NCBI GenBank assembly: GCA_020249465.1 | Contig: JADCFP010000034.1 | Coordinates: 1-64,000, forward strand | DNA: 64,000 nt | From: Roseomonas sp. | Lineage (GTDB): Bacteria > Pseudomonadota > Alphaproteobacteria > Acetobacterales > Acetobacteraceae | Direction: 5' to 3' | Part shown: positions 41,731 to 49,730 of the stretch, piece after piece | Numbering within the stretch: the first letter of the stretch is position 1 | Layout of the letters: each line of letters opens with the position of its first letter | The notes under the pieces: generated by a model | Seen by the model: only the letters and a program-made list of their open reading frames with translations | Told to the model about the DNA's origin: nothing | The model's database searches: none | Position numbers and translations under genes: made by a program

Positions 41731-42040
41731 CTATGAAACCGGACACTTGGCTTGGTTGGATAACTGGCTTGCTACGAACTCACGTGGCGAGCGCATGCGC
41801 AAGCCTGAATGCGGGTGGATGTTGTTGTAATCCTCGAACCAGGCTGGCAGTTGCTTGAGTACGGAGATGGCGTCTTACCTTGGGTTCACGCGGGCATAGT
41901 CGCGTTTAAGGGTTTTGACGAAGGCCTCGCAGACGCCGTTGCTCTCCGGGCTACGGACCGGCGTGAAGCATGGAACAAGGTTCAGGGCTGCGGCGAAGTC
42001 AGTGGTCTCAGCTCCGGTATAGGCTGAACCATTATCAGCC
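41731..42040 (-). pseudogene. IS3-family transposase (OrfB) C-terminal remnant
   Basis: On the minus strand this encodes the end of an rve/DDE integrase domain: 'DNGSAYTGAETTDFAAAL' with the second catalytic Asp, then 'VRSPESNGVCEAFVKTLKRDY' with the catalytic Glu, then TAA in place of a codon, then 'FEDYNNIHPHSGLRMRSPREF', ending in TAG at 41731. It lacks the first ~two thirds of the gene and carries an in-frame TAA, so it is dead. It abuts and truncates the phzF-like gene. About 155 bases between it and the tctC start hold no gene. Confidence 0.88.
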
Positions 42041-42626
42041 AACCTTCACCGCGAAAAAGCGTGAGGTGATGTCCACCCCATCCCCGCCCAAGGCGGTCAC
42101 AATCACGCGTTCCGGCCCAGGCAAGGCTGCCAAGGCAGCGTGATCAGGCAGAAGCGCCACTACCTGTTCGGGGCTTTCCATGACGCAAATCCAATCACGC
42201 GCGCCATGCACTTTTCGCGGCGTGGCTCCAAGCGCGGAGGTAAGCGCCGCCGGCGCTGCGGCGGGTTCGGAAAGCCTTGCCGGGAAATCAAGAATGAAGC
42301 GCTGCCCATCCGCTTCCACCAGCAAGGGGCCGGAGAGTGTGTGAAAGGTGAAGGGCGGTGTTTGCTTCAATTCGCGCGCCAGCACAAAAGCGGTCGCCAG
42401 TGTTGCATGGTCGCACATCTCAACCTAGACCTTGGGGATAAACCAGCGGAGCCGCCAGCCAGTGCCTTCGCGCATGATAAAGGCGGTTTCTGAGAGATTA
42501 TGCTCGACCGCCATGGCCTGCATCACGGCATCCGGCAGCGGCGCTTCAAGCGGCACCACAGCAGCGGAATTGCCGGCAAAGGGGCGGGGGGGTAAAGGCG
42601 TCAATCAGGAAAAGCGGGAGTTTCAT
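42035..42626 (-). pseudogene. Broken phzF-like gene (phenazine biosynthesis PhzF family)
   Basis: Joined across its lesions this reads MKLPLFLIDAFTPRPFAGNS..., then 'EHNLSETAFI', then 'CDHATLATAFVLA', then 'RFFAVKVG', a PhzF/YddE isomerase-like protein. Three lesions: a G7 run at 42586-42592 where six bases keep the frame (+1 frameshift near codon 13); an in-frame TAG at 42425-42427, probably from GAG; and loss of the C-terminal ~100 residues at the IS3 remnant. The ORF-track protein at 42035-42418 is only the middle piece. The usual CGHATLA is also CDHATLA. Confidence 0.88.
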
Positions 42627-42669: not shown

Positions 42670-44979
42670 TCAGACCTGGATGGATAGACTCGTGATCATC
42701 GCAAAGGGATCCTGAGGAACGCTTGCCGCCGCAATCGCCGCTGTTGCCTCTGCCATCAGAAAACGTTCAGCAAAAGCATTGACCTTGTCCGCGTTCTGTA
42801 AATCGGCAAGATTCATCCTTGTCGTGATGGCGCGTGCCTGGGTTTCGATCGGTTGAATGGCTATTTCAATCGGCAGGCCCAATGCCCCAAGAACGACGCG
42901 GCTCATTACTGAATTTGCCAAGATGTCATAAGCCGTCTTCATATTCTTGGCATTTTCCATGAAGTATATCGCGTCTGCCATTCCTGGATTGGTGGTGCTT
43001 AGGCCTGTGCGATATTCGTATTTAGTATAACCGCTCGTTAAAATATCCAGCATTTTCGGATCAGCGAGACTGCCGAGGGAGCTCACGAATTTCATCTGTT
43101 CCACAATAAGAGACGCTTCAGAGGTCATGATCCGCGTGACTGAGCCAACAGAAGACGTGGAATACGGACGTCCATCGCGGCCATTCAACACCTGCTGCGA
43201 ACGCGTGTAAAGCGATTGCGCCCGATTTTGCTCTTCAATGGTGACGGCTGACGTCAGCATGCGATCAGCCATGGCCGCTGATACTTCCAGGGCAAAATTG
43301 ACATTTCCATTGATGCCATCCTGGTGGAAACTTTCCAGTCTGCGCTGAAATTCCTTTGACCAAGCGTCAGAACCAGGCGCATCCAGAACGGCCAATCTTT
43401 CGATCCGCTCGGCAACGCCGGCGGCATTACGGCGCACCTGTTCCAAAGAAATACTCGCCTCCAGCAGGGCGGCCCGTGCATCACGCGACATTGACGCGGA
43501 AAGACTGGTATCGGCTTCAACCTCAATCAAGGCATCGTCCAGTCGCTGAAGCGCTGAAGCATAAGACCCGGCACGCACCATCGGTGCCATCTCCCTCAGG
43601 GCATTCCAGGCTGACATAGCCAAACCAACTGGCGGCGTTTCACCTAGCGTAATCGCGCTCAGCGCTGCCTTGGCGCCATAGGCCACTTCAAGCTGACCGC
43701 GTGGCAGGTTGGGCGGCGGGGTATTTTTCATGGCCTCCACCACGGCCGTAGCTTCAGTCTCGGAGATACGCTTGATCGGTACATCTTCAATTGGTGTGGT
43801 CGTCGGCCTGCCATCACGGCTATTGAGCACTATTGTGGAGCGATCAGAATAGGACTTCGCCAGATCCGCATCGAAAGAATTGATCGAACTATCCACCATG
43901 CGCTGGGCCATGGCGGCCGCAACCTCAAGCGCGAAATTCGCGTTTCTTTCTATACCATCCTTGTGAAACGCGTCCAGGCGTACCTTGTAGGCGGATGACC
44001 AGGCAGGGTTGTCTGGCGTATCCAGCATCACGAGCTTTTCGATGCGTTCGGCCACCCCAAAGGCATCGCGCGCCATCTGTGCCACCGCTATACCGCTTTC
44101 CATCAACGCCAGCCGGCCAGCGCGCGTTTGCTCCGCTGAGATACCGCCAGCGCTCTCAAGATCGGTTAAGGCCAGATCAATCGCGGATAGAGCGGAATCA
44201 AACTTACCTGTGCCGATGAGCAGCGCCGTTTGCTGGAGTGCATCGCGCACGATGCCGGGCAAATCACTGTCCGGAAGCTCGCCCATGCGGATGGTTACTG
44301 CTGTCAGCGTCGCCGAATAATCCAGCTCCAGTTTCGCGCGATCCATGGTGGCGTTCTCACCCGGACGCAACTGCCCTGCAAGCGCGGTAGTGACGCTATC
44401 CGCCAAGCCATCAAAGGCACTGACCCTTGGGAGCGGGGGCGGGTAGGTCGGCGCAGTCATCACCGCCTCACCCATTCGCAACTGGCTGGCAACAGCGGTT
44501 GTCTCCGCGTCAGTCAGCCCGACATAGGCAACAGTTTTTGGCGTGCTGGTCAGCAATAGGTTCAGCGTGGCCGCAGCATTCACCCAAGTGGTGCCAAGCT
44601 GCGCCGCAACGCCCTCGGGATCGTTTGGATCAGACAAAAGCGCCCGCTTGACCATGCCTGGGTTGCCGACCTGATCCGGCAAACCAAGCGCGGGCATGAG
44701 AACAGTCAGAACGCGCGGGTCGGAAAGCGCCTTGTCGAGGTCCTTTGCGGTCTCCAGAGCCTGACGAAATTGTGCGATCGCCGAAAGGGTGATTGGGTCC
44801 TTTGCTTCCTGTTCAAGTCCCTTTGTCTCAGCGCCCGGGACAATCAAGCGGCGAAAGGCAATGACAGCGTCGCTCGGGCTTGCCGCCACAGTCGGCATTG
44901 CCAAGGGCAGTGTCAGAGCGGTCGAGCCTGATTGGGTGAAAAGGCTCAAGACCAAACTTGATGACGCGTTGATAGTCAT
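42670..44979 (-). CDS. Large DUF1217-like protein with duplicated internal insert (paralogue 1)
   Basis: A 769-residue protein without a signal peptide. Residues about 55-145 ('KDPITLSAIAQFRQALETAKDL...VLMPALGLPDQVGNPGMVKRALLSD') and about 640-769 ('DILTSGYTKYEYRTGL...VVLGALGLP') look like the two halves of a DUF1217 domain. Between them are two ~200-residue helical repeats sharing 'MESGIAVAQMARDAFGVAERIEKL' / 'LEASISLEQVRRNAAGVAERIERL' and 'NFALEVAAAMAQRM' / 'NFALEVSAAMADRM'. It ends 'DPFAMITSLSIQV'. DUF1217 proteins are often encoded with flagellar genes, but none are here. Base composition is less GC-rich than neighbours. The function is unknown. Confidence 0.8.
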   Translation of the reverse strand: MTINASSSLVLSLFTQSGSTALTLPLAMPTVAASPSDAVIAFRRLIVPGAETKGLEQEAKDPITLSAIAQFRQALETAKDLDKALSDPRVLTVLMPALGLPDQVGNPGMVKRALLSDPNDPEGVAAQLGTTWVNAAATLNLLLTSTPKTVAYVGLTDAETTAVASQLRMGEAVMTAPTYPPPLPRVSAFDGLADSVTTALAGQLRPGENATMDRAKLELDYSATLTAVTIRMGELPDSDLPGIVRDALQQTALLIGTGKFDSALSAIDLALTDLESAGGISAEQTRAGRLALMESGIAVAQMARDAFGVAERIEKLVMLDTPDNPAWSSAYKVRLDAFHKDGIERNANFALEVAAAMAQRMVDSSINSFDADLAKSYSDRSTIVLNSRDGRPTTTPIEDVPIKRISETEATAVVEAMKNTPPPNLPRGQLEVAYGAKAALSAITLGETPPVGLAMSAWNALREMAPMVRAGSYASALQRLDDALIEVEADTSLSASMSRDARAALLEASISLEQVRRNAAGVAERIERLAVLDAPGSDAWSKEFQRRLESFHQDGINGNVNFALEVSAAMADRMLTSAVTIEEQNRAQSLYTRSQQVLNGRDGRPYSTSSVGSVTRIMTSEASLIVEQMKFVSSLGSLADPKMLDILTSGYTKYEYRTGLSTTNPGMADAIYFMENAKNMKTAYDILANSVMSRVVLGALGLPIEIAIQPIETQARAITTRMNLADLQNADKVNAFAERFLMAEATAAIAAASVPQDPFAMITSLSIQV

Positions 44980-45103
44980 GACCCACTCCTAGGTTGCAAA
45001 TCATTAAGAAATCACTGACGCCCTACCGGATCGACGGCTTTGCTTCAGAAACGTTACGTCAAAATCAAACTTGGCCACCCCATATTTTGTTGGGGAAGGC
45101 GCC

Positions 45104-47416
45104 TCAAACCTTGATGGAAAGGCTTGATATCGTTGCAAAAGGATCATTCGACGCATTGCTGGCTTTTGCCGCTGCCTTGTCGGCTTCCGCCATCAAATAG
45201 CGTTCGGCAATGGCGCGCACCTTGGCCGGGTCCTGCAAATCCGTCAGCTTCAGCCGAGAGGTCACGGCCCTCGCCTGAGTTTCAACCGGCTGAATGGCAA
45301 GCTGATCGGGCAGCCCCAAGGCGCCCAAGACCACGCGGCGCATGACGCCGTTCCCAAGAATGTCATAAACCGACTTAACCGTCTTGGCATTTTCGCTGAA
45401 ATAGACAGCATTCGCCATGCCTGGATTGGCTTCACTTAGCCCAGTGCGATATTCGTATTTCGTGAAGCCATTGGTCAGGATTTCCAGCATCTTCGGATCA
45501 GAAAGACTGCCAAGGCGAAGCCCCGCCTTCATCGAATCTACGATCTTGCCGGCTTCAGAACCCAGGATTTTGGTTTGCAGCGTGCTGGCGAAACTGGAAA
45601 GCGGGCGTCCGTCACGGCCATTCAGGACTTGCCGGGACCGGCTTGCCAATGATTGCGCCTGCAAGGTCTCGTCCAAGTTGGTGGCGCTGTCCAGCATCCG
45701 ATCAGCCATGGCAGCCGAGATTTCAAGCGCGAAATTCACATTGCCGTTGATGCCATCCTTATGGAAATTCTCAAGCTTGGTCTGGAAATCACGAGACCTT
45801 GTCGCAGCTGAGGGCGCATCCAGCGCGGCCAGTTTTTCAAGCCTTTCGGCAACACCCGTCGCGTTGCGCCGCACCTGTTCAATTAGGGCGCCGGTTTCAA
45901 GCAGGGCGGCATTCGCGGTACGCTTCATGGATGCGGGGATGCCGGTGTCATCCGCAATCGTGGCCAAGGCTTCATCCACGCGCTGAATAGCGGAGTTATA
46001 AGTTCCCGCCCGTATCAGCTTAGCGATATCCTTGAGGGCCTGGCTTCCAAGGCTTGGCATGCCAAAGACCGGCGTTTCCGCCAGCTTGATGGCGCTGAGC
46101 GCCGCGCCGGCAGCGTAAGTCACCTCAATCTGTGCGCGCGAGACATTGGGCGGCGCGGCGTTCTTCATGCTATCCAAAAGCTTCGTCGCATCTGCCTGAG
46201 TAATGCGCGCGGGTGGCACGCCTTCAATAGGTGTCTTGGTCGGCTTGCCATCGCGCTTATTCAGGATATTGGTTGCGCGATCAAGATAAATTTTGGCCAG
46301 ATCACGCTCATCGGCATTCAGCGCGGCATTCTGCATGCGCTTTGCCATGGCAACGGCCACGTCCAGCGAAAAATTCGAATTCTTGTCAGCGCCTTCCTTT
46401 TGGAACGCATCAAGCCTGGTCTTGTAATCGGGCGCCCAGGCCGGGCTGCTTGGCGAATCAAGCGCCACCAGTTTTTCAACCTGCTCGGCCACCGCAAAGG
46501 CATCGCGGCGCATCTGTGCCAGCGCAATGCCGTTTTCCATCAGCGTCACGCGGCCCTGGCGCAATTGATCAGCCGTCAGCCCGCCTGCGCTATTAAGCGC
46601 AAGAAGCGCGTCATCCACAGCACCTTGCGCCCTGTCCAAGGACCCGCCTTGGATGAAGCCCGCCATTTGCTTCAGCGCATCCTTGGCGATGCTGGGCAAT
46701 TCATCCGGCGGCACTTCGGCGCGCCTGATGGTCACCGCCGCCAGTGTCGCGACCTGTTCAACCTCGCGCCGCGCGCGATCGGGCACCAATTCCTCACCGG
46801 GGCGGAGCTGCGCAATCAGCGCGCTGGTTACCTTGTCCGGCAAGCCATCAAAACCGCGTAGCCTGGGCGTGGCTGCCTTGGTGACGGGCGCGGTGAGCAC
46901 CGCTTCTCCAAGCCGCAATTGCCCGGCCACCGCGGTGGTTTCCTTATCCGTCAGCCCTTCAAAGGCGACAGTCTTGGGCGTGGTAGTGGCCTTCAGATTG
47001 AGCGTGGTGGCCGCATTCTTCCACGTGGTGCCAAGCTGCACCGCAACGCCCTTGTTGTCCTTCGGATCAGACAAAAGCGCCCGCTTCACCAGCCCGGGAT
47101 TGCCCACCTGATCCGGCAGGCCAAGTGCGGGCATCAACACCTTCAAGACACGTGGATCGGAAAGTGCCTTGTCAATATTGGGCGCCGCATCCAGGGCTTG
47201 GCGAAACTGCGCCAGCGCCGTCAACGTCACAGGGTCTTTCTTTTCGCGCGCGAGGCCTTTTTCTTCTTCACCGGCTTTGGTGACGCGGCGGAAAGCCACC
47301 ACAGCCTCCCCCGCGCTGGCCACAGGGGCAGCGTTACCGAAGGGAAGCATCAGCGAGTTTTGACCTTGTTGGCCAAATAACCCCGCTATAAGGGTGGCAC
47401 TCATATTGATAGCCAT
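45104..47416 (-). CDS. Large DUF1217-like protein with duplicated internal insert (paralogue 2)
   Basis: A 770-residue protein, a clear paralogue of the preceding downstream gene along its whole length: same split DUF1217-like ends ('KDPVTLTALAQFRQAL...VLMPALGLPDQVGNPGLVKRALLSD'; 'LEILTNGFTKYEYRTGLSEANPG') and same two ~200-residue internal repeats ('MENGIALAQMRRDAFAVAEQVEKL' and 'LETGALIEQVRRNATGVAERLEKL'). C-terminus 'DPFATISSLSIKV' nearly equals its partner's. Only 124 bases separate the genes, including a small hairpin CCCCA-TATTTTGT-TGGGG. Genes probably arose by tandem duplication and may act together. It is downstream of thiD on the same strand with a 64-base gap. Confidence 0.8.
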   Translation of the reverse strand: MAINMSATLIAGLFGQQGQNSLMLPFGNAAPVASAGEAVVAFRRVTKAGEEEKGLAREKKDPVTLTALAQFRQALDAAPNIDKALSDPRVLKVLMPALGLPDQVGNPGLVKRALLSDPKDNKGVAVQLGTTWKNAATTLNLKATTTPKTVAFEGLTDKETTAVAGQLRLGEAVLTAPVTKAATPRLRGFDGLPDKVTSALIAQLRPGEELVPDRARREVEQVATLAAVTIRRAEVPPDELPSIAKDALKQMAGFIQGGSLDRAQGAVDDALLALNSAGGLTADQLRQGRVTLMENGIALAQMRRDAFAVAEQVEKLVALDSPSSPAWAPDYKTRLDAFQKEGADKNSNFSLDVAVAMAKRMQNAALNADERDLAKIYLDRATNILNKRDGKPTKTPIEGVPPARITQADATKLLDSMKNAAPPNVSRAQIEVTYAAGAALSAIKLAETPVFGMPSLGSQALKDIAKLIRAGTYNSAIQRVDEALATIADDTGIPASMKRTANAALLETGALIEQVRRNATGVAERLEKLAALDAPSAATRSRDFQTKLENFHKDGINGNVNFALEISAAMADRMLDSATNLDETLQAQSLASRSRQVLNGRDGRPLSSFASTLQTKILGSEAGKIVDSMKAGLRLGSLSDPKMLEILTNGFTKYEYRTGLSEANPGMANAVYFSENAKTVKSVYDILGNGVMRRVVLGALGLPDQLAIQPVETQARAVTSRLKLTDLQDPAKVRAIAERYLMAEADKAAAKASNASNDPFATISSLSIKV

Positions 47417-47480: not shown

Positions 47481-48287
47481 TCAGCGCAAAATCGCAGGAT
47501 CGCAGGTGAACGCGTGGTTAAGCGGCCCATGGCCGGCGCCGAAACCAGGTGCAGACGCAATGGCCGCGCGCACATAGGCCCGGGCGCGGATCACGGAATC
47601 CCTGAGCGAGAGCCCCTGCGCCAGGCCCGCCGCCACCGCACTCGCCAGTGTGCAGCCCGTGCCATGGGTGTGGCGCGTTGCAATCCGCCGGTCGCGGAAG
47701 ATTTCAAGGCGCGTGCCGGTTGCCAGCAGATCGACCACCTCATCGCCCGGCAAATGCCCGCCCTTCAGCAGCACTGCCTTGGGGCCAAGCGCCAGCAGCG
47801 CCTTGGCCGCCTGGTGCATGGCGCCAACATCCTGGATGGCAAAGCCGCATAGGGCCTCGGCCTCCGGCAGGTTGGGGGTAAGCACGGCGGCGATGGGCAG
47901 CAGGCGGTGCTTCAAGGTCTCGGCGGCGTCCAGCACCAGCAAGGGGTGGCCGCCCTTCGCCACCATGACCGGGTCCGCAACCAAGGGTAGGCCAGGGGCG
48001 CGGGTGGTGATTTCATCGCAGACCGCGTCAATGGTCGCGCTATCGGCCAGCATGCCGGTCTTCAGCGCATCGGCCCCCAAATCATCCAGCACTACCGCAA
48101 TCTGCTGGCGCAGGAAGGCCAGCGGCACCGGCAAAACCCCATGCACGCCAAGCGTATTCTGCGCCGTCAGCGCGGTGATCGCTGTCATGCCAAAGGCGCC
48201 CAGCGCCGTCACGGCCTTGAGGTCCGCCTGAATGCCCGCCCCGCCGCCGGAATCAGACCCGGCAATGATCAGCACACGCCCCTTCAT
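47481..48287 (-). CDS. thiD: Hydroxymethylpyrimidine/phosphomethylpyrimidine kinase
   Basis: A 268-residue ribokinase-fold enzyme phosphorylating HMP and HMP-P in thiamine synthesis. '[22 protein letters not shown]' at the N-terminus, '[13 protein letters not shown]' in the middle and '[18 protein letters not shown]' at the C-terminus (anion hole and catalytic Asp region) are diagnostic. Its ATG overlaps the glmM stop by four bases, so the two are cotranslated. No TPP riboswitch is seen because the gene has no free upstream region. Confidence 0.93.
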
Positions 48288-49651
48288 GCCGCGCGCGCCT
48301 CCGCCCGGATCAGCTCAGCCAGGCGGCCCACCACGCCTTCCACCAGCGCCTCTTCTTCGGCTTCCGCCATGACACGGATCACGGGTTCGGTACCGCTTGC
48401 GCGGATCAGCACGCGCCCGCGCGCACCAAGGGCGGTTTCCTCGGCAGCAATGGCCTCGGTCACCACGGGCTTCGCGAGCGGCGAGTCGCCGGCATAGCGC
48501 ACATTCACAAGGCGCTGGGGCAGGGGGGTGAAGCAGCGCAGCACCTCACTCGCCGGGCGCTTTTCTTCGACCAGCACGGAAAGCACTTGCAGCGCGGCGA
48601 TCAGCCCATCTCCCGTGGTGCCGAAATCGGGCATGATCATATGGCCGGATTGCTCGCCGCCCAGATTGCAGCCGGCTTCTCGCATCTTCTCGCCCACATA
48701 GCGGTCGCCAACCGCGGTGCGGAGCAAGCCAAGCCCGCGTGCCGCCAGATAGCGTTCCAGCCCCATATTGGACATGACGGTGGCCACCACGGCGCCGCCG
48801 GTCAGGCGGGTTTGCGCATGCCAGGAATGGGCGATCAGGGCGAGTATCTGATCGCCATCAATCACCTGCCCGGCCTCATCCACCAGCACCAGGCGATCGG
48901 CATCGCCGTCCAAGGCAATACCCAGATCTGCGCGGCGTTCCTGCACCAAACCCGCAAGTGACGCGGGCGCGGTGGAACCCACGCCCTTGTTGATGTTGAA
49001 ACCATCAGGGGCGACGCCAATCGGGATCACCTCGGCCCCCAATTCCCACAGCACCGTGGGCGCCACGCGATAACCGGCGCCATGGGCGCAATCCACCACA
49101 ATACGCAGCCCATCCAATGTTTGCCCGCGCGGGAAAGATGCCTTGGCGGCTTCAATATAGCGCCCCGGCGCATCTTCCAGCCGGCTTGCGCGACCAAGCC
49201 TTGCGGATGGCACGAGCGCCGCACCCAGGTCGCCCGCCATCAGGGCTTCAATCTCCGCTTCCTGCTCATCGGTCAGCTTCAACCCATCCGGGCCGAACAG
49301 CTTGATGCCATTATCCTCATAGAGGTTGTGGGAGGCGCTGATCATCACGCCCAAATCCGCCCGCAAGGACCGCGTGAGCAAGGCAATGGCCGGTGTGGGC
49401 AAAGGCCCGACCAGCACCACGTCCATCCCCGCACCGATAAAACCGGCGGTCAGCGCCGGTTCCAGCATATAGCCGGAAAGCCGCGTATCCTTGCCGATCA
49501 CGACCCGGTGGCGGTGATTGCCGCGATTGAAGAAACTGCCCGCCGCCTGGCCCAGGCGTAGCGCAGTTGCGGCATCCATCGGCGCGGCATTGGCCTTGCC
49601 GCGAATACCATCAGTGCCGAATAGTTTGCGGGTCGGGGCTGCTTCGCTCAT
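48284..49651 (-). CDS. glmM: Phosphoglucosamine mutase
   Basis: A 455-residue enzyme making glucosamine-1-phosphate for UDP-GlcNAc and peptidoglycan. N-terminus '[17 protein letters not shown]', the phosphoserine loop '[20 protein letters not shown]' (about residue 100), the metal loop '[17 protein letters not shown]', and the C-terminal '[18 protein letters not shown]'. I start at [11 protein letters not shown]; the ORF-track adds 18 residues. In alphaproteobacteria glmM commonly follows ftsH and folP, as here apart from two inserted genes. Confidence 0.95.
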
Positions 49652-49730
49652 GCGCGGCTTATAGCCCCTTGCCGGCTTCGGATGGAACCCGCCCGCGCCC
49701 GGCAAGCCGAGGCGCGGCGCGGGGTTCGGT

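What the first reader, a model, noticed from the sequence alone, without database searches (positions are those of the whole stretch)
42670..47416. Tandem ~770-residue proteins with a DUF1217-like domain split by duplicated repeats
Both proteins share N- and C-terminal DUF1217-like halves separated by about 450 residues made of two ~200-residue helical repeats; a ~25-residue motif (like 'GLTDKETTAVAGQLRLGEAV') also recurs at the junctions. This implies an internal duplication first and then a gene duplication. Ordinary DUF1217 proteins are about 260 residues and usually lie with flagellar genes, but no flagellar gene is nearby. Shared C-terminal 'DPFAxIxSLSIxV' may be an export or assembly signal. 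This is the best candidate in the window for an undescribed system, for example a filament or secreted-structure component pair.
Basis: partly seen in the sequence, partly recalled or inferred. Interest (0 to 1): 0.75.

Follow-up and report, generated by a model that had tools for sequence, protein, structure and literature searches.

The report
Enlarged, duplicated flagellar DUF1217 protein
Two neighbouring genes in a freshwater Roseomonas-like bacterium encode enlarged versions of a poorly understood flagellum protein, each with a fast-changing, doubled helical block inserted at its middle; the family may do for these bacteria what the flagellar cap protein FliD, which they lack, does elsewhere.

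Summary
Both genes (45104-47416 and 42670-44979, minus strand; 61% identical) carry Pfam DUF1217 split into N- and C-terminal halves by ~480 residues, most of it two ~200-residue helical repeats (40-43% identical), with a short motif recurring at the junction. The proposed order (insert doubled first, gene doubled later) is supported.

It is not a separate system. The gene sits in the same glmM-thiD-DUF1217 slot throughout the genus: one subclade has the ordinary 270-residue protein, another the 770-residue form, one genome a single-repeat form. The genome is flagellated. DUF1217 follows FliF across 250 genomes of the order, lies in flagellar clusters elsewhere, and is broken in the two long-form genomes lacking FlhA. 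By gene order it appears to be 'CP1' of Phaeobacter, whose mutant secretes flagellin but builds no filament.

Best reading: a late flagellar assembly factor, possibly an exported tip/junction protein substituting for FliD, with a variable exposed insert. FliD is absent from every DUF1217-positive genome in the order sample, though two genomes in a class-wide sample have both. Relatives carry FlgE_D2 or ALTTAQ repeats at the same site. The fold does not resemble FliD; export is untested. New variant of a known family.

The parts
45104..47416 (-). P1: 770-aa DUF1217 protein, the resident copy in the glmM-thiD-DUF1217 slot
42670..44979 (-). P2: 769-aa paralogue, 61% identical to P1; also present, 95% identical, next to P1 in genome G064 only
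46994..47314 (-). P1 N-terminal DUF1217 half (about residues 35-141)
46793..46960 (-). P1 repeated junction motif (GLTDKETTAVAGQLRLGE, then GLPDKVTSALIAQLRPGE)
46202..46807 (-). P1 insert repeat A (residues 204-405), all-helical, modelled with high confidence
45563..46162 (-). P1 insert repeat B (residues 419-618)
45182..45514 (-). P1 C-terminal DUF1217 half (about residues 635-745)
45107..45145 (-). P1 conserved C-terminal tail DPFATISSLSIKV, shared with ordinary DUF1217 proteins of the genus
44557..44877 (-). P2 N-terminal DUF1217 half
43765..44370 (-). P2 insert repeat A
43126..43725 (-). P2 insert repeat B
42748..43080 (-). P2 C-terminal DUF1217 half
47481..48287 (-). thiD (phosphomethylpyrimidine kinase), conserved neighbour that marks the locus across the genus
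48284..49705 (-). glmM-type phosphoglucomutase/phosphomannomutase, conserved neighbour (start codon uncertain)

Best explanation
P1 and P2 are enlarged versions of the alphaproteobacterial flagellar protein DUF1217, which appears to be 'CP1' of Phaeobacter inhibens. The conserved N- and C-terminal halves form one scaffold. The middle insert is a fast-evolving helical block that probably points outward. The protein acts late, when flagellin is polymerised onto the finished hook, most likely at the growing tip or the hook-filament junction and exported with the other axial proteins, so that it takes the role FliD has elsewhere. Shown here: family membership, split and repeats, orthology to the ordinary gene, tie to the flagellum, absence of FliD from DUF1217-positive genomes of the order, variable inserts at one site. 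Taken from a paper: the mutant phenotype. Inferred: the CP1 identity (from gene order), export, location at tip or junction, and what the two copies are for (for example matching the several flagellins of this genome).
For: 1) Same slot glmM-thiD-DUF1217 with a 270-aa or 770-aa gene across the genus. 2) DUF1217 tracks FliF in 250 genomes: 177 both, 48 neither, 9 DUF1217 only, 16 FliF only; Fisher p 2.6e-28; 14 of the 16 have much weaker YscJ_FliF matches. 3) In the long-form clade all 15 genomes with FlhA and a complete gene have it intact; the two without FlhA have a gene with an internal stop (G208) or a truncated, frameshifted remnant (G254). 4) Elsewhere the gene sits among fliI, fliJ, motA, motB, fliK, flgI or in the order flagellin-flaF-flbT-DUF1217 in Cereibacter, Roseivivax and Salipiger, with one small gene between in Azospirillum; the fliC-flaF-flbT-CP1 order on a C. 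sphaeroides plasmid is given in PMC12363192. 5) The CP1 mutant is immotile, shows no flagella by EM, yet FliC and most of the usual flagellar proteins are outside the cell; P. inhibens lacks FliD (PMC12363192). 6) FliD_C over the cut-off occurs in 9 of 250 genomes of the order, all one genus without DUF1217; 0 of 186 DUF1217-positive genomes have it. 7) The split site carries FlgE_D2 in G030, G041, G008 and ALTTAQ repeats in G189, G143, G118. 8) Inserts change faster than the scaffold: P1 vs G261 dN 0.27-0.30 in the repeats against 0.02 (N-half) and 0.12 (C-half).
Against: The DUF1217 fold matches only 2O8S, not FliD, flagellin or hook proteins. CP1 was not found in the P. inhibens exoproteome and its authors suggested chaperone-like roles. 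Two of 26 DUF1217-positive genomes in the class sample also have FliD (G391, G417), on different contigs. The exclusivity in the order rests on one FliD-bearing genus, so it may reflect which flagellum type was inherited. The Caulobacter control matches neither family, so some alphaproteobacterial flagella work without either. CP1 = DUF1217 rests on gene order, not on the Phaeobacter sequence.
Confidence: 0.45

Rival explanations
1. DUF1217 proteins are cytoplasmic flagellar assembly factors (chaperone, export or length regulator) needed for the filament stage; the enlarged form has an added TPR-like helical protein-binding block. Nothing of it leaves the cell.
For: CP1 absent from the exoproteome and a chaperone role suggested by its authors; position after flbT and flaF, which encode regulators of flagellin synthesis; the all-helical insert resembles TPR proteins weakly (best Foldseek match Tom70, E 0.0097); compact fold without a match to axial proteins.
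Against: FlgE_D2, a domain of the external hook protein, sits at the same insertion site in three genomes. A large, fast-evolving insert fits an exposed surface better than a chaperone, though not exclusively.
Confidence: 0.35
2. DUF1217 is an axial component other than a cap, for example a rod, hook or junction subunit, and the insert decorates that structure.
For: Conserved ends with a variable middle and FlgE_D2 inserts; some annotations call it FlgF or similar to FlgF (H16; PMC9430466).
Against: FlgF or FlgK are separate genes beside it in annotated clusters; the CP1 mutant still releases most of the usual flagellar proteins; no axial-protein fold match.
Confidence: 0.12
3. One reading: a tandem pair forming its own filament or secreted structure, unrelated to the flagellum.
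For: The gene is away from other flagellar genes here; two paralogues kept in two genomes.
Against: Orthology to the ordinary flagellar gene, coupling to FliF and FlhA, and decay where FlhA is lost; most genomes of the clade have only one copy.
Confidence: 0.04

Closest known systems
DUF1217 (PF06748), including AGR_C_984 of Agrobacterium (PDB 2O8S)
   Same: Both halves match the Pfam model and 2O8S; the ordinary homologue models as the 2O8S fold.
   Different: About 480 residues inserted between the halves, containing two helical repeats with no convincing Pfam or PDB relative; the gene is duplicated in tandem.
CP1 of Phaeobacter inhibens fla1 flagellum (PMC12363192)
   Same: Same gene order flagellin-flaF-flbT-DUF1217 on a Cereibacter sphaeroides plasmid; late assembly phenotype fits.
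   Different: CP1 sequence not compared directly. The paper holds that CP1-4 were probably gained after Rhodobacterales split off, whereas DUF1217 is found in Acetobacterales, Azospirillum and Rhizobium.
FliD (HAP2) filament cap
   Same: Loss of either prevents filament formation; FliD is absent from DUF1217-positive genomes of the order sample.
   Different: No fold match to FliD; two genomes of the class sample carry both.
FlgE hook protein D2 domain (PF07559)
   Same: Found inserted at the DUF1217 split site in three relatives.
   Different: P1 and P2 carry helical repeats there, not FlgE_D2.

Membership tests
DUF1217 (PF06748) | Score above the curated Pfam cut-off | tested here: met
   87.8 and 77.4 bits against 22.9
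DUF1217 (PF06748) | Contiguous domain in a protein of about 260-300 aa (typical, not required by Pfam) | tested here: not met
   Domain split by about 480 residues; split or long forms also occur in other genera, so this does not exclude membership
DUF1217 (PF06748) | Positional orthology with ordinary DUF1217 genes of the genus | tested here: met
   glmM-thiD-DUF1217 in both forms; in L096 thiD is about 1.1 kb away and glmM was not found in the stretch
Flagellar protein | Co-occurrence with core flagellar genes | tested here: met
   FliF table over 250 genomes and FlhA in the genus
Flagellar protein | Loss or decay when the flagellum is lost | tested here: met
   G208 and G254 lack FlhA and have a broken gene; only two cases, and FliF was tested in G208 but not in G254
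CP1 of Phaeobacter | Sequence identity with PGA1_c23640 | not tested
   Only gene order compared
FliD-like filament cap (works like) | Absent where FliD is present | tested here: inconclusive
   Exclusive in the order sample; 2 of 26 overlap in the class sample
FliD-like filament cap (works like) | FliD fold (terminal coiled coils plus D2/D3) | tested here: not met
   Only 2O8S matched; no FliD match
FliD-like filament cap (works like) | Exported and located at the filament tip | not testable with these tools
   Needs experiment
TPR solenoid (insert) | TPR profile or fold match | tested here: inconclusive
   No convincing Pfam match; weak Foldseek matches to Tom70 and other TPR proteins, none at E 0.001 or better

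The most novel reading that the evidence does not exclude
DUF1217 is the missing filament cap of those alphaproteobacterial flagella that lack FliD: an unrelated fold doing FliD's job. In this clade the cap has gained a fast-evolving outer block and, in two genomes, a second paralogue.
Probability: 0.28. Interest if true: 0.8.

Novelty: new variant of a known kind. Interest (0 to 1): 0.52.

Why it matters
How flagella without FliD polymerise flagellin outside the cell is, as far as I know, not settled. The evidence gathered here makes one uncharacterised family a specific, testable candidate, and links it to an existing mutant with a fitting phenotype. The enlarged forms show that the family's split site accepts quite different domains, which bears on whether the protein is exposed on the outside. 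It also suggests that at least one of the four proteins described as acquired by Rhodobacterales is much more widespread.

Tried and rejected
BLASTP of each protein against itself with default settings showed only the full-length match, so the repeats were tested as separate pieces with shuffles. NCBIfam and PHROGs gave nothing usable. Homology of the N-half to the C-half, as opposed to a split domain, was not supported: scores of 44 and 43 lie within the shuffled range (maxima 53 and 50). The P1 model gave no Foldseek match at E 0.001 or better, and its ends modelled poorly. A flagellin-like look of the long C-terminal extensions in L138 and L139 was not borne out by Pfam (both) or by a PDB search (L138). 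Whole-genome laying was not available. In G391 and G417 I looked for two separate flagellar clusters; FliD has flagellin-type neighbours by eye, but the DUF1217 neighbours were not identified, so this stays open. G191, which has FliF and FlhA but no DUF1217, also lacks thiD, so the locus is probably missing from the assembly.

Full report
Observation. The two ORFs at 45104-47416 (P1, 770 aa) and 42670-44979 (P2, 769 aa), minus strand, are as described and 61% identical over their full length. DUF1217 (PF06748) matches each in two separate stretches at E 1.1e-24 and 1.6e-21, above the curated cut-off. Between the halves lie two ~200-residue repeats, 40% (P1) and 43% (P2) identical to each other, far above shuffled controls, and a short motif that recurs before the first repeat. 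The N- and C-halves are not copies of each other: their scores lie within the shuffled range.

Locus and history. The genome is one of 35 searched in its genus; the named long-form records found are MAGs, mostly labelled Roseomonas sp., with some names that point to lakes. The gene follows thiD, and mostly glmM, across the genus. One subclade has an ordinary protein of about 270 aa in this slot, another the 770-aa form, and G260 a 520-aa form with one repeat. The insert lies between 'TLGVYxT' and 'GLxGLRDP' of the ordinary protein; in a modelled ordinary homologue this point falls between short helices. The single-repeat form fits an intermediate (270, then 520, then 770 aa), but secondary loss is not excluded. 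The tandem pair was found only in this genome and in G064; the P2 copies are 95% identical and form their own branch. Synonymous divergence between these two genomes is 0.09 for P2, 0.93 for P1 and 0.28-0.47 for four upstream genes, which suggests recombination at the locus.

Tie to the flagellum. The genome has FliF, FlhA, FliG, FlgE, FlgK, FlbT and six flagellin-type genes, but no FliD match. Over 250 genomes of the order, DUF1217 and FliF agree in 225 (177 both, 48 neither; Fisher p 2.6e-28); relatedness of genomes is not corrected for. Of the 16 genomes with FliF only, 14 have much weaker YscJ_FliF matches, one (G191) lacks the whole locus, and one (G026) is unexplained. Of the nine with DUF1217 only, three (G060, G078, G173) have FlhA, so FliF is probably an assembly gap there. 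In the long-form clade, 15 genomes with FlhA have the gene intact. The two without FlhA have it broken: in G208 by an internal stop, in G254 as a truncated and frameshifted remnant that is 98% identical to P1 over 131 residues. Treating genomes as independent, that split has probability 1/136; in-clade relatedness makes this rough.

Position in other genera. In two other Acetobacteraceae the gene was found beside fliI, with fliJ, motA, motB, fliK and flgI nearby in one, and motA, motB and fliK were found near the gene in a third. On annotated plasmids it follows flagellin-flaF-flbT in Cereibacter, Roseivivax and Salipiger, follows them with one small gene between in Azospirillum, and precedes fliI in Komagataeibacter.

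Link to CP1. PMC12363192 describes a conserved fliC-flaF-flbT-CP1 cluster on a 124 kb plasmid of C. sphaeroides; the 121 kb C. sphaeroides plasmid examined here has flagellin-flaF-flbT-DUF1217. On gene order CP1 is therefore DUF1217; the sequence of CP1 itself was not compared. The CP1 mutant is immotile and shows no flagella by EM, while FliC and most of the flagellar proteins seen in wild type and the motB mutant remain in the exoproteome; FliD is absent in P. inhibens. FliD loss likewise prevents flagella from forming (PMC5072837). The authors of the CP1 work did not detect CP1 outside the cell and suggested chaperone-like roles.

FliD distribution. In the order sample FliD_C exceeds the cut-off in nine genomes, all of genus g31, none with DUF1217; none of the 186 DUF1217-positive genomes has it. 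This is one genus, so possibly one event. In a class-wide sample of 232 genomes, 49 have FliD over the cut-off, 26 have DUF1217, and two (G391, G417) have both. Substitution is therefore suggested, not shown.

The insert. At the same split site, G030, G041 and G008 carry FlgE_D2, a domain of the hook protein, and G189, G143 and G118 carry ALTTAQ repeats. G219 has five DUF1217 stretches in one 720-aa protein. In P1 the repeats model as helices at high confidence; the whole-protein search gives only weak matches to TPR-type proteins such as Tom70. Across species the repeats change faster than the scaffold while synonymous rates are of similar order (P1 vs G064a: dN 0.24 and 0.15 in the repeats, 0.05 and 0.04 in the halves). 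This is the pattern of an exposed variable region, but a fast-changing binding surface inside the cell would look the same.

Mechanism. Shown: family, split, repeats, orthology, tie to the flagellum. Supported but not shown: action at the filament stage, through the CP1 link. Inferred: export, location at tip or junction, and a cap-like role. I put the exported, cap- or junction-like reading at 0.45, a cytoplasmic assembly factor at 0.35, another axial role at 0.12 and an independent system at 0.04.

Conclusion. The pair is a clade-specific enlargement and duplication of a known flagellar family. Its value lies less in the duplication than in pointing to DUF1217 as a candidate for the unknown filament-assembly factor of flagella without FliD.

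Noticed in passing
G000 contigs C34, C146, C159 (L107, L108, L034): Six flagellin-type genes in three pairs in the window's genome, one pair followed by flbT without DUF1217.
   Followed up: partly
Acetobacteraceae genus g31 (G087, G110, G120, G150, G157, G180, G190, G211, G229): A genus with FliD, no DUF1217 and (eight of nine listed) weaker YscJ_FliF matches, suggesting a flagellum of different origin.
   Followed up: no
L099:9015-11174 (G219); G008 open frame of 1036 aa: DUF1217 proteins with five tandem domains, and a very long form with FlgE_D2.
   Followed up: partly
L138, L139; G272, G339, G362, G371, G391, G424, G435: Open frames of about 770-980 aa carrying a nearly complete DUF1217 match; in L138 and L139 the match ends near residue 205 and the rest is a C-terminal extension.
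   Followed up: partly
window 42670-47416 compared with G064 (L074): Synonymous divergence differs sharply between P1, P2 and four upstream genes, suggesting recombination at the locus.
   Followed up: partly
window 42035-42418: 127-aa ORF with a weak PhzC-PhzF match; its counterparts in relatives lie in ORFs of 262-274 aa, so the gene may be truncated here or the start misjudged.
   Followed up: no
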